A stretch of 38,075 bases of DNA from an uncultured Prevotellaceae bacterium (lineage in GTDB: Bacteria; Bacteroidota; Bacteroidia; Bacteroidales; Muribaculaceae): the NCBI GenBank assembly GCA_900320245.1, contig ONRP01000045.1:1-38075 (forward strand), in the 5' to 3' direction. Position numbers and translations under genes: made by a program. The notes under the pieces were generated by a model that was given only the letters and a program-made list of their open reading frames with translations, was not told the DNA's origin and did no database searches. This document shows positions 1 through 28,781 of the stretch, in pieces; within the stretch, counting starts at the first letter, position 1; every line of letters starts with the position of its first letter.

Positions 1-107
1 GAATCTCTATCAGTGAATGGATTGCATTTTTGATACGACCTCTCTGCAATCGCGGCTGCACTGAAGCGATTCCAATTCACAATGTTAATTAATTTTTAAG
101 AAAGACT
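1..107 (+). promoter_or_regulatory. Leader upstream of rpsD, possibly structured
   Basis: This is non-coding sequence before rpsD and does not encode the C-terminus of S11, the usual upstream neighbour. Complementary segments are visible: 14-20 with 72-79 (TGAATGG/CCAATTCA, one bulge) and 21-26 with 45-50 (ATTGCA/TGCAAT). Together they give a nested fold ending about 28 nt before the ATG. S4 is a known autoregulator of its operon in other bacteria, so an S4-binding leader is a reasonable inference, but it is not shown here. The left edge is cut by the window. Confidence 0.35.
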
Positions 108-716
108 ATGGCTAGATACACCGGTCCTAAATCAAAAATTGCCCGCAAACTGGGTGAACCCATCTTCGGTGAAGACAAGTACTTTGCCAAGAAAAACTAT
201 CCCCCGGGCCAGCATGGTGCCAACCGTCGCAGGAAAATGTCTGAGTACGGCACCCAACTTCGCGAAAAACAGAAAGCAAAATACACCTACGGCGTCCTCG
301 AACGTCAGTTCCGCAACCTCTTCAACAAGGCTTCACGCATGAAGGGCGTTACCGGTGAGGTGCTCCTGCAGTTGCTCGAGGCAAGACTCGACAACGTCGT
401 TTACCGCCTGGGTATCGCTCCCACGCGCGCTGCAGCCCGTCAGTTGGTACTGCACCGTCACATCACTGTCGACGGCAAGGTTGTCAACATCCCTTCCTAC
501 TCGGTAAGCGAGGGACAGATTGTCGCCGTTCGCGAGAAATCCAAATCACTTGAGGTGATCCAGGACGCCCTCGCCGGCTTCAACCACAGCAAGTATCCTT
601 GGATCGAATGGGACGAGAGCGTAAAGGGCGGCAAACTGCTGCACATGCCCGTTCGCGATGACATCCCCGAGAACATCAAGGAACAGTTGATCGTCGAGTT
701 GTATTCTAAACAGTAA
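108..716 (+). CDS. rpsD: 30S ribosomal protein S4
   Basis: S4 is a primary 16S rRNA-binding protein that nucleates 30S body assembly and in many bacteria also represses its own operon. The 202-aa product has the family's full length. The N-terminal part starts [17 protein letters not shown], and the region with YPPGQHG and RRRKMSEYG is typical of the non-zinc S4 type. The S4 RNA-binding fold covers about residues 93-155, with [10 protein letters not shown] and [13 protein letters not shown]. The start ATG at 108 gives the canonical N-terminus. The gene is followed 11 nt later by rpoA and then rplQ, the conserved end of the alpha operon. Confidence 0.98.
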
Positions 717-727
717 AATTTTTATCC

Positions 728-1720
728 ATGGCTATTTTAGCATTTCAGAAACCCGACAAAGTCTTAATGTTGGAAGCCGACAACTCGTTCGGCAAGTTTG
801 AGTTCCGACCCCTGGAGCCCGGCTACGGCGTCACCATCGGTAACGCACTGCGCCGCATCCTCCTCTCAGGACTCGAAGGCTTCGCAATCTGCAGCATCCG
901 CATCGACGGCGTGCAGCACGAGTTCGCAACCATCACGGGAGTGAAGGAAGATGTTACCAACATCATCCTCAACCTCAAGAAGGTGCGCCTCAAACGCATT
1001 GTCGAAGACACCGACACCGAGAAGGCCGTTGTCAAGGTTTCAGGTCAGAGCGTCTTCAAGGCAGGTGATATCGGCAAGGTGCTCAGCGCGTTCGAGGTAC
1101 TCAATCCCGAACTCGAGATTTGCCACATCGACCCCTCCTGCGGTTTCCAGATCGAACTCTCGATCAACAAGGGACGTGGTTATCTGCCCGCCGAGGAGAA
1201 CAAGAACGCCAACGACCCCATCGACGTGATCGCCATCGACTCCATCTACACGCCCATCCTGAACGTGAAGACCGCAGTCGAGAACTTCCGTGTCGAGCAG
1301 AAGACCGACTACGAGAAGTTGATCATCGAAATTACCACCGATGGCTCAATCCACCCCAAGGACGCTCTCAAGGGCGCTGCCGAAATCCTGATCCAGCACT
1401 TCCAACTCTTCACCGACCGTGAAATCGTCCTCGACAACACCGAGGTCAACGGCAACGAGGAGTTCGACGAGGAGGTACTCAAGATGAGGCAACTGCTCAA
1501 GACCAAACTTGTTGACATGGATCTCTCTGTACGTGCACTCAACTGCCTCAAGTCGGCCGAAGTCGAGTCGCTCGGAGAACTCGTGGTCTTCAACAAGACC
1601 GACCTCCTCAAGTTCCGCAACTTCGGTAAGAAGTCGCGCAGCGAACTCGAGGAACTGTTGGCCAACCTCAATCTGCACTTTGGCATGGATATCACTAAAT
1701 ACAAATTAGAAAAAGAGTAA
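728..1720 (+). CDS. rpoA: DNA-directed RNA polymerase subunit alpha
   Basis: Alpha dimerises to scaffold RNA polymerase assembly, and its C-terminal domain contacts upstream DNA and regulators. The product is 330 aa, the usual length. The N-terminal domain (about 1-230) contains [26 protein letters not shown], interrupted here only by the usual family variation, and later [19 protein letters not shown]. After a short acidic linker, the C-terminal helix-hairpin-helix domain (about 255-320) contains [19 protein letters not shown] and [16 protein letters not shown]. The gene lies between rpsD and rplQ with gaps of 11 and 6 nt, which indicates cotranscription. Nothing looks unusual. Confidence 0.98.
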
Positions 1721-1726
1721 AGAACA

Positions 1727-2215
1727 ATGAGACACAATAAGAAATTCAACCACCTGAGTCGCAAGAGCGCCCACCGTGATGCCATGTTGGCCAATATGAC
1801 CATCTCCCTCATCATGCACAAGCGCATTATCACGACCCTCGCCAAGGCTAAAGCCCTGCGTATGTATGCCGAGCCCCTGATCAACAGGACCAAGGACGAC
1901 ACCACCGCATCGCGCCGCCTCGTCTTCCAGCACCTCCAGAACAAGGAGGCCGTCAAGGAACTCTTCTCGACCGTAGCCGCTAAGGTCGCCGACCGTCCCG
2001 GTGGATACACCCGTATCCTCAAGTTGGGCAACCGTCTCGGTGACAACGCCAAGACCTGCTTCATCGAACTCGTAGACTTCAATGAGGCCATGCTCGAGGC
2101 CAAGGGTCAGGAGAAGGCCGCTGCCAAGAAGTCGACCCGTCGCAGCCGCAAGAAAGTAGCCGCTCCCGCAGCCGAGGCTCCCGCAGCCGAAGAGGCTCCC
2201 AAGACCGAGGAATAA
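1727..2215 (+). CDS. rplQ: 50S ribosomal protein L17
   Basis: L17 binds 23S rRNA near the peptide exit side of the large subunit. The family core fills residues 1 to about 115: [20 protein letters not shown] at the start, then [25 protein letters not shown], and [17 protein letters not shown] further on. A C-terminal tail of about 40 residues, rich in Lys then Ala/Glu/Pro, extends past the core, as is common in Bacteroidota L17. The gene starts 6 nt after the rpoA stop and is the last gene of the operon, followed by a strong hairpin terminator at 2269-2308. Confidence 0.97.
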
Positions 2216-26356: not shown

Positions 26357-26451
26357 GGCAGCCATGCCGGTGATTCCGTGTGTGAACAAATTGAACACAA
26401 TAACCCTTTTTCGATAAATTAAACCCTAAAAACAACCAATTGACAATCATC

Positions 26452-28191
26452 ATGAGACAACCGAAATTGATATTCTTCCTGTTGTTCTGTTTCATCATCG
26501 CCACTGCCGATGCCCAAGTGAGGTTTAACGGCAAGACGGCAGCAGTCGACACTTTGACAGGCAACTGGTTGCTGTCGGTTCCAAGGACGGTCTTCGGTGC
26601 TGACTATGATGCAGCGATCACCCTTGGCGACAGCCTCGCTGTCTGCACGATTGAGGACAGCGTGGTGACCGACCACTATACCTTCAGCAATGTGCAGCCT
26701 TCAGCGGTCTATCACCTCTGTATGGCAAGCGGCGAGGATACGGTAAGGGCCAATATCCAGTTCACCTTTTGGCCGATAATCCAGATCTATGGCGACTATG
26801 TCAAGAGGCCCTATAACCACGGAACCGTGGTCTATACCCATCCCGATTCGGTGTGCCAGGACAGCCTCATCTCGCGTGTGAGATGGGCGGGAAGTTCGAC
26901 GGCGGGCGAGGATCGTAAAAAGCACAATTTCCATCTCAAGTTCTATAACGAGGACAGCACCAAGCACGAGATGTCCTTCTTCGGGCTGCGCAGCGATTTC
27001 CACTGGCGACTGGATGCCGGGCAGGTCGATTTCGCCCGCGTGCGCAACCGTGTGGCCAAGGATATCTGGGCCGAATTTGCTCATAAGCCCTACTATGCCG
27101 CCTATGAGCCCAAGACGCCTTACAACTATGTGCGCGGCGACTTCGTCGAGGTCTTTCTCAACGACCAGTATATGGGCATTTACAGCCTGAATGAGCACAT
27201 GGACCGCCAGCAACTCAAACTCAAGAAATATGACTATGAGGACAGCGTGTTCCATGGCGGCTTGTGGAAACCGATGATGTTCAGTGCGACCACTACATTC
27301 AGGAACACGCCCGCCATCGACCCCACCTTGAAGCACTGGGATGAGTTCTATGTCAAGTATCCCAATATCGATGACGTGAACCCCACCAATTTCGTTACGC
27401 TCAGGAAGGCCATCCTTTTTGCCATCACGCCCCGTGAGAAGTTATACAGGGACAGCGTTGCCTATTACTTTGACATTCCCGTGTTCCGTGACTACTATCT
27501 GCAGACTATCCTGATGCAGGCCCCCGACAATGTCGGCAAGAACCTGTATTACGCATGCTATGACGTCGCCACCGACCGCCGACTGACCCTTGCGTTATGG
27601 GACATGGACTGCACACAGGGCCAGTACTGGAGCAACGAGGGCAGCGACTATCACCACAGCATGGTAGGACCCGAGGTCGATTTCAGGGCTGGGTATCTCA
27701 AGGATCACTATGTCTTCAGACGCTTGTGGACAACCTTCCCCTCGTTCCACGGCTTGGCTACCGAGCGGTACTGGGAATTGCGCGAAACGACTTTCAACCC
27801 CGATAGCATACTGGCGCGTTACGAAGCCTATTTCAACGAGATGAAGGCTTGCGGTGCCGACCAGCGTGAGATAGCCCGCTGGAGTTATGGCAGCGACCTG
27901 GGTGGCCGCGAACTGAACTTCGATAATGAGTTGGTATACTTGCGCAACTGGTGGACACGCCACATCGCCTACCTGGACCAAAACGTCTTTATCCCTTACC
28001 CGATGGGTGATGTCAACTTCGACCGCAAGGTGGATATTGACGACATTACGGCGTTGATCGGGTGCCTTCTGACGGGTGACAGCGACGAGTTGAACCTCCG
28101 GCGCGCTGATATCGTTCCCGACGAGCGCGTCGACATCGATGACTTGTGCGAACTCATCAACAGGGTGCTGACTGGACATTCCGAACAGTGA
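26452..28191 (+). CDS. Secreted CotH kinase-type protein with C-terminal dockerin-like repeats
   Basis: CotH-type proteins are protein kinase-like enzymes known from spore coats, and secreted versions occur in many gut Bacteroidales. I chose ATG 26452 (MRQPKLIFFLLFCFIIATADA, 579 aa) because it gives a typical signal peptide; a TTG four codons upstream adds nothing. Visible CotH features are the HNFHLKFYNEDST strand region, NRVAKDIWAEFAHK, YVRGDFVEVFLNDQYMGIYS and LNEHMDRQQLKLKK. The metal/catalytic-type segment is LALWDMDCTQGQYW. The final part carries two dockerin-like repeats: GDVNFDRKVDIDDITALIGC and DIVPDERVDIDDLCELI. Substrate unknown; extracellular location likely. Confidence 0.85.
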   Translation: MRQPKLIFFLLFCFIIATADAQVRFNGKTAAVDTLTGNWLLSVPRTVFGADYDAAITLGDSLAVCTIEDSVVTDHYTFSNVQPSAVYHLCMASGEDTVRANIQFTFWPIIQIYGDYVKRPYNHGTVVYTHPDSVCQDSLISRVRWAGSSTAGEDRKKHNFHLKFYNEDSTKHEMSFFGLRSDFHWRLDAGQVDFARVRNRVAKDIWAEFAHKPYYAAYEPKTPYNYVRGDFVEVFLNDQYMGIYSLNEHMDRQQLKLKKYDYEDSVFHGGLWKPMMFSATTTFRNTPAIDPTLKHWDEFYVKYPNIDDVNPTNFVTLRKAILFAITPREKLYRDSVAYYFDIPVFRDYYLQTILMQAPDNVGKNLYYACYDVATDRRLTLALWDMDCTQGQYWSNEGSDYHHSMVGPEVDFRAGYLKDHYVFRRLWTTFPSFHGLATERYWELRETTFNPDSILARYEAYFNEMKACGADQREIARWSYGSDLGGRELNFDNELVYLRNWWTRHIAYLDQNVFIPYPMGDVNFDRKVDIDDITALIGCLLTGDSDELNLRRADIVPDERVDIDDLCELINRVLTGHSEQ

Positions 28192-28318
28192 CAACCCGGG
28201 AAGGGTAGAGAACAGCAGGGTGGGGTACCACCTGCCGTGGGCATATGTTCCTGGGGCAAAAATCCGCCTGCGGGATACTTAATTTTTTCATTTTAGGCAA
28301 ATTTGTTCACTTTTTTCA

Positions 28319-28348
28319 TTGCAGGGTCGCAAAATTGTACTACCTTTG
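28319..28348 (+). promoter_or_regulatory. Promoter of rplS
   Basis: TTG at 28319-28321, a 19-nt spacer and TACCTTTG at 28341-28348, 85 nt before the rplS ATG. Confidence 0.75.
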
Positions 28349-28432
28349 CCCCGCTTTTCGTAATCTCTGACAAGAAATAGTGTGGCTTGTGTATATTGCG
28401 AAGTGATTATTAACAGATTAAATGATATAACA

Positions 28433-28781
28433 ATGGACTTGATTAAAGTTGCAGAACAAGCATTTGCTACAAACAAGCAGCACCCGCAGTTTTTCCCGGG
28501 TGACACAATCACGGTAGCATACCGCGGAGCGTATCCAGCAGTACCGTGGTGTGGTGATCAAAATCAACGGCGAGGGTGACAAGAAGCGTTTCACCGTTCG
28601 CAAGATCAGTGACAACATCGGCGTTGAGCGTATTTTCCCGCTCGAGTCTCCGTTCATCGACAGCATCTCCATCAACAAGCATGGTAAGGTTCGTCGTGCT
28701 AAGTTGTATTACCTGCGTGGTCTCACCGGTAAGAAGGCTCGCATCAAGGAGCGCCGCATCATCAAGAAGGAGGAGGCATAA
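28433..28781 (+). pseudogene. rplS: 50S ribosomal protein L19, frame broken by an apparent 17-nt deletion
   Basis: L19 sits at the 30S-50S interface. The first part reads MDLIKVAEQAFATNKQHPQF and continues [12 protein letters not shown] in frame to codon CGC (28523-28525). The family then needs six residues (as in VVEGSK of E. coli L19) before [20 protein letters not shown], which is present but in another frame beginning at 28527. A single G (28526) replaces the expected 18 nt, so 17 nt are missing and the frame shifts. Restoring them gives a 121-aa protein, normal for L19, ending in the conserved [20 protein letters not shown]. No slippery sequence was seen. A sequencing or assembly error is the simplest cause; a real lesion would remove a normally important protein. 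Confidence 0.85.

What the first reader, a model, noticed from the sequence alone, without database searches (positions are those of the whole stretch)
28433..28781. rplS (L19) broken by an apparent 17-nt deletion in a near-universal ribosomal gene
Both halves of L19 are well conserved and lie in different frames. Exactly six family residues are missing between TVAYR and [12 protein letters not shown], and one leftover G remains of the expected 18 nt. The rest, including promoter and terminator, looks functional. It is either a consensus or assembly error or a real lesion compensated elsewhere. A +1 shift at CGC-G would restore the frame but still lack the loop.
Basis: partly seen in the sequence, partly recalled or inferred. 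Interest (0 to 1): 0.7.

Follow-up and report, generated by a model that had tools for sequence, protein, structure and literature searches.

The report
Ribosomal gene broken by assembly error
The gene for ribosomal protein L19 looks broken in this genome, but the break is almost certainly a short-read metagenome assembly mistake at a stretch of DNA that many closely related rumen species share letter for letter, so probably nothing biological is lost.

Summary
rplS (28433-28781) lacks exactly 17 nt between 28525 and 28526, so its halves lie in different frames. The own assembly shows no second rplS. It is very unlikely to be biology. Of 93 same-genus assemblies inspected, 8 have rplS broken inside a contig (window -17; others -50, -58, -60, -155, +47, +1, one replaced 3' end). 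Another 5 have contig ends at or in the gene, and 80 are intact. rplT behaves likewise (17 of 80 partial only, own genome included); the less conserved smpB hardly does (2 of 83). rplS is an inter-species repeat: exact runs shared with other species have medians of 77-137 nt in the gene, 10-14 nt downstream. In 4 of 5 clean deletions the arm first in the contig matches another species for exactly 99 nt (100 in the fifth; 3% at control positions). The own rplT contig end also shows 99. That is k-1 for a k=100 de Bruijn assembly; IDBA-UD was used for rumen MAGs of this genus. Verdict: contig-joining artefact. Raw reads were not available.

The parts
28433..28525 (+). 5' part of rplS (L19 residues 1-31); arm that ends at the false junction
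   Evidence: tblastn residues 1-31, 97% identical. The 99 nt that end at 28525 are identical in G122 and G129, and the next base upstream differs.
28525..28526 (+). junction where 17 nt are missing
   Evidence: Gap of 17 in the alignment with an intact relative; no microhomology; 30-base junction pattern found in 1 of 101 genus genomes, the own one.
28526..28781 (+). 3' part of rplS (L19 residues 38-121 in another frame, then the stop codon)
   Evidence: tblastn residues 38-121, 98% identical; profile match 33-111 of 111.
28318..28432 (+). upstream region conserved in a relative, probably promoter and leader
   Evidence: Aligned without gaps to the intact relative from -115; promoter function inferred, not tested.

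Best explanation
The lesion is a metagenome assembly artefact, and the organism very probably has an intact rplS. The genus has many related species, and rplS is nearly the same DNA in many of them. In a k=100 de Bruijn assembly, a species-specific contig can run only k-1 = 99 nt into such a shared stretch before the graph branches. The two contigs flanking the stretch were then joined directly, without Ns and with the wrong amount of overlap, so 17 nt were lost. Shown: the shared stretches, the lesions of other sizes in sister MAGs, the breakage of rplT, and the 99-nt run at the junction and at another contig end of the own genome. Inferred: that read pairs drove the join, that the second contig was over-trimmed, and that the assembler was IDBA-UD.
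For: (1) 8 of 93 inspected same-genus genomes (own included) have different in-contig rplS lesions, and 5 more have contig ends at or in the gene. (2) rplT has only partial matches in 17 of 80 genomes, including the own genome, whose contig C65 starts inside it; rplM in 5 of 79; smpB in 2 of 83. (3) In one set of 20 species the median exact run shared with another species is 83 nt for rplS, 197 for rplT and 20 for smpB. (4) In the arm that lies first in contig orientation, 4 of 5 clean deletions have a species sharing exactly 99 nt; the fifth has nine species at exactly 100; the rate for 99 is 3.0% over 1088 control positions. The 47-nt duplication in G129 gives 99 at one of five tested placements. 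(5) Own contig C65: six of the 20 species in the rplT set share exactly 99 nt from its end. Two contig ends of G126 overlap by exactly 99 nt. (7) The one-contig genome G060 (98% complete) has full-length L19, L20, L13, L16 and SmpB matches. (8) The two halves differ from the three closest relatives mostly by synonymous changes, 9-11 against 2-4 codons.
Against: No raw reads were available, and the own genome's assembler is unknown. Two of the 8 lesions, G016 (+1) and G048 (replaced end), show no 99-nt run in the 5' arm. The window's own contig ends show none against 19 relatives each (31 nt at most at the start, no match at the end). In the tally, 99 comes first with 4 of 5, but seven other run lengths reach 3 of 5, partly because the window and G122 share a junction. 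Of 12 rplT and 7 rplS contig ends tested, 4 and 1 include a species at 99; no chance rate was computed for these. L16 has no partial match in 61 genomes, although 40 lack it altogether. In the 39 genomes of other families of the order that have rplS, none is broken; 8 of 93 against none of that group is not significant by itself (p = 0.10, which used n=40).
Confidence: 0.96

Rival explanations
1. A real deletion in the living population that inactivates rplS, compensated by another copy or tolerated.
For: The sequence as given has the deletion, without Ns. The assembly is about 90% complete, so a second copy could be missing.
Against: No second rplS was found. Other lesions occur in rplS of 7 sister MAGs and in other ribosomal genes. 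There is no microhomology. The 99-nt run is not expected of a biological deletion. The gene is otherwise under purifying constraint.
Confidence: 0.03
2. Programmed frameshifting or another recoding event joins the two frames and makes a loop-shortened L19.
For: The two frames are both conserved and directly adjacent.
Against: 80 of 93 inspected genus genomes have an uninterrupted gene. The lesions differ in size and, except for the left junction shared by the window and G122, in place between genomes, so there is no conserved shift site. Six conserved residues would still be missing.
Confidence: 0.005
3. A simple base-calling or consensus error, unrelated to assembly graph structure.
For: The G016 +1 change could be of this kind.
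Against: A clean 17-nt block is not a typical short-read base error (general knowledge), and the junction sits 99 nt into shared DNA.
Confidence: 0.01

Closest known systems
Inter-species repeat artefacts in metagenome assembly (described in PMC8021871, passages read)
   Same: DNA shared between species fragments contigs and can cause assembly errors.
   Different: That paper's examples are mobile or transferred DNA, with 'conservative regions' also named; here the shared DNA is a conserved ribosomal protein gene and the error is a clean short deletion without Ns.
Ribosomal protein bL19 (rplS, Pfam PF01245)
   Same: Both halves match with high identity, and the flanks align with a relative.
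   Different: The reading frame is interrupted, at a junction found in no other of the 101 genus genomes.

Membership tests
k=100 de Bruijn contig-join artefact | The gene lies in DNA shared exactly between related species over about k bases or more | tested here: met
   Median shared runs of 77-137 nt inside rplS, 10-14 nt downstream (31 genomes, every 15th position).
k=100 de Bruijn contig-join artefact | One arm ends exactly k-1 = 99 nt into a shared run | tested here: met
   The window's 5' arm shares exactly 99 nt with G122 and G129; other genomes share other lengths, among them 97, 101 and 109. Over the five deletions, 4 show 99 and one shows 100.
k=100 de Bruijn contig-join artefact | Same signature elsewhere in the same assembly | tested here: inconclusive
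   Seen at the C65 start in rplT (6 of 20 species at 99); not seen at the two ends of the window contig.
k=100 de Bruijn contig-join artefact | Raw reads contain the missing bases | not testable with these tools
   No reads held.
Functional rplS (bL19) | One uninterrupted reading frame over the whole family profile | tested here: not met
   Only profile positions 33-111 match in one frame; two frames.
Real pseudogene with a compensating copy | A second rplS in the genome | tested here: not met
   1 match in the own assembly, which is about 90% complete.

The most novel reading that the evidence does not exclude
The deletion is real, and this rumen species lives with an interrupted L19 gene, decoded by frame switching or replaced by an unassembled copy.
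Probability: 0.02. Interest if true: 0.7.

Novelty: not a real feature. Interest (0 to 1): 0.08.

Why it matters
As biology it does not. As a caution it has some use: in genera with many related species in one sample, the most conserved single-copy genes may be the likeliest to look broken or missing in short-read MAGs. rplS was broken or cut in 13 of 93 genomes by inspection, and by profile match rplT was only partial in 17 of 80 and smpB in 2 of 83. This affects completeness estimates, marker-gene trees and claims of ribosomal gene loss. An arm of k-1 shared bases at the lesion is a simple test for this artefact.

Tried and rejected
Rejected: a second rplS (none found); the same junction in relatives (none found); a chimeric window. 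On the last point, the window's start, rplS and its end lie in the same order on one contig of G043, G122 and G127. A lesion confined to rplS was rejected because rplT and rplM break too.

Led nowhere: the window's own contig ends gave no 99-nt run. The L9 N-terminal domain (47 positions; 84 genomes match, 5 of them only over a shortened stretch) was judged too short to score and was not used. A search of the own genome for a second contig overlapping the C65 end found only C65. In the deletion-placing script the window row is invalid, because the gene had been cut one base too long; the placement used here is. One fetched rplM region (L251) was not analysed, and the rplT in-contig lesions were only aligned, not tested for the 99-nt run. 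Literature: among the 4 and 8 papers listed, no title or abstract start describes clean deletions in ribosomal protein genes of MAGs from this cause; only listings were seen, except PMC8021871 (passages). That is no proof that it is unpublished.

Caveats on counts: 1 of the 94 genomes with an L19 match (G012) was not fetched. The 80 intact are 73 by a script filter plus 7 by tblastn. The 8-against-1 comparison with smpB counts G131 as the one in-contig lesion and takes the partial G124 match to be cut by a contig end, which was not checked; G057 has an extra partial smpB piece beside a full one and was not counted. The choice to look at the arm first in contig orientation was made; counting all ten arms of the five deletions, 4 of 10 show 99. 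The five deletions are not fully independent: the window and G122 share a left junction and are 99-nt partners of each other. The 99-nt control rate was taken on intact 366-nt genes, 5' arms only, at every tenth position.

Full report
What is there. rplS runs from 28433 to 28781 on the + strand. Compared with an intact gene from the same genus, it lacks one block of 17 nt after 28525, and nothing else in the gene is inserted or lost. The two halves match residues 1-31 and 38-121 of intact L19 at 97% and 98% identity in two frames. Against the three closest relatives the halves carry 9-11 synonymous and 2-4 non-synonymous codon differences, so this does not look like a decaying gene. The junction has no microhomology, and the window has no Ns. 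The own assembly (3.02 Mb, 73 contigs, about 90% complete) has no second Ribosomal_L19 match.

The genus. The search covered 101 genomes of the genus, the own one included (300 were asked for). I recall that such MAGs belong to the GTDB genus Sodaliphilus; that name was not tested. The window's own record was not identified.

The lesion is one of many. 94 of 101 genomes have an L19 match; I had rplS DNA for 93 of those 94. 80 are intact (73 by a script, and 7 by tblastn). Eight are broken inside a contig: G000 (window, -17), G043 (-58), G020 (-155), G035 (-50), G122 (-60, in frame), G129 (47-nt tandem duplication), G016 (+1) and G048 (3' end replaced by other sequence). Five more have contig ends at or in the gene: G026, G055, G105, G110 and G126. 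G110 and G126 each have rplS on two contigs whose ends overlap exactly, by 49 and 99 nt. Of 40 genomes from other families of the order, 39 have a match, each a single piece without stops.

Controls in the same 101 genomes. rplT: 80 match, 17 of them only partially, the own genome among these, where contig C65 begins inside the gene. rplM: 79 match, 5 only partially. L16: 61 match, none partial, but 40 have no match at all, the own genome among them. smpB, less conserved: 83 match, 2 only partially. rplS breaks by inspection (13 of 93) exceed partial smpB matches (2 of 83), Fisher p = 0.006; for in-contig lesions, 8 of 93 against 1 of 83, p = 0.04 (one smpB case assigned to a contig end without a check). 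G060, a one-contig genome at 98% completeness, has full-length matches to L19, L20, L13, L16 and SmpB.

Why there. For 31 intact genomes I measured the longest exact run shared with another species of the genus, reported at every 15th base. Inside rplS the median is 77-137 nt. Just 5' of the gene, from -14 to -89, it is 44-65 nt and falls to 9 nt at -149; downstream it is 10-14 nt. With one set of 20 species, the gene medians are 83 nt (rplS), 197 nt (rplT) and 20 nt (smpB), the same order as their breakage. L16 and rplM were not measured. To a short-read graph assembler rplS is thus a repeat between species.

The 99-nt signature. If the assembler's last k was 100, a species-specific contig ends exactly 99 shared bases beyond its last distinguishing base. 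I tested the five clean deletions, taking the arm that comes first in contig orientation (5' arm for four, 3' arm for G035, whose gene is on the minus strand); this choice of arm was made after a first look. Four have at least one species sharing exactly 99 nt: the window with G122 and G129; G043 with 13 species; G035 with one; G122 with seven. The fifth, G020, has nine species at exactly 100; a shift of the junction by one base would explain that (inference). The second arms show no run of 99. At 1088 control positions in intact genes, a 99-nt run is present in 3.0%. If the five were independent, four or more of five would have probability 4e-6, and three or more of four 1e-4; the window and G122 share a junction, so the first figure is too strong. 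In the same tally seven other run lengths (18, 52, 54, 63, 66, 72, 97) occur in 3 of 5, so 99 stands out by one; its weight comes also from being the value expected beforehand from the 99-nt end overlap of G126.

More on the signature. G129 gives 99 for one of the five junction placements tested; G016 and G048 show none in the 5' arm. Neither end of the window contig shows it against 19 relatives each. The own genome's C65 end in rplT matches six of 20 species for exactly 99 nt. Of 12 contig ends tested at or in rplT, four (G000, G016, G020, G043) include a species at 99 and one (G035) at 100; of 7 rplS contig ends, one (G126:C6) does. At least four further rplT contig ends (G057, G058, G112, G136) were not fetched.

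The assembler. Two rumen MAG papers state that single samples were assembled with idba_ud and co-assemblies with MEGAHIT with k up to 87 (PMC5830445 and PMC6785717, passages read). That idba_ud's default largest k is 100 is recalled. 99 fits idba_ud and not k=87. Whether the own genome was made this way is not known. PMC8021871 (passages read) describes conserved regions shared between species as a source of fragmentation and inter-genome errors.

Mechanism. Shown: shared DNA, junctions and some contig ends 99 nt into it, and clean lesions of varied size. Inferred: the scaffolding step joined the flanking contigs on read-pair evidence, kept the first contig whole and cut the second by a wrongly estimated overlap, giving deletions when too much was cut and a duplication when too little was cut.

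Verdict. Observation confirmed; biological lesion very unlikely; assembly artefact at about 0.96. Raw reads would settle it.

Noticed in passing
window 1-2215 and G000:C65:1-283: The window contig begins just before rpsD and rpoA (Pfam), the own assembly has no L16 match, and its rplT is cut at a contig end, while its L13 and L9 N-terminal matches are full length: several conserved ribosomal genes of this genome are missing or cut.
   Followed up: partly
G009 rplS (L037) and G110 rplS (L109): The loop affected in the window differs in length in these two genomes: a few extra residues between AYR and ERIQ. In G110 the gene is also cut by contig ends.
   Followed up: no
window 26440-28191: The gene upstream of rplS encodes a CotH kinase domain followed by a type I dockerin domain.
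   Followed up: no
L128 (JAMPAQ010000001.1): A MAG record titled Pseudoflavonifractor sp. carries an rplS 88% identical to the Bacteroidales query on a 1.78 Mb contig; the label may be wrong.
   Followed up: no
   Followed up: partly
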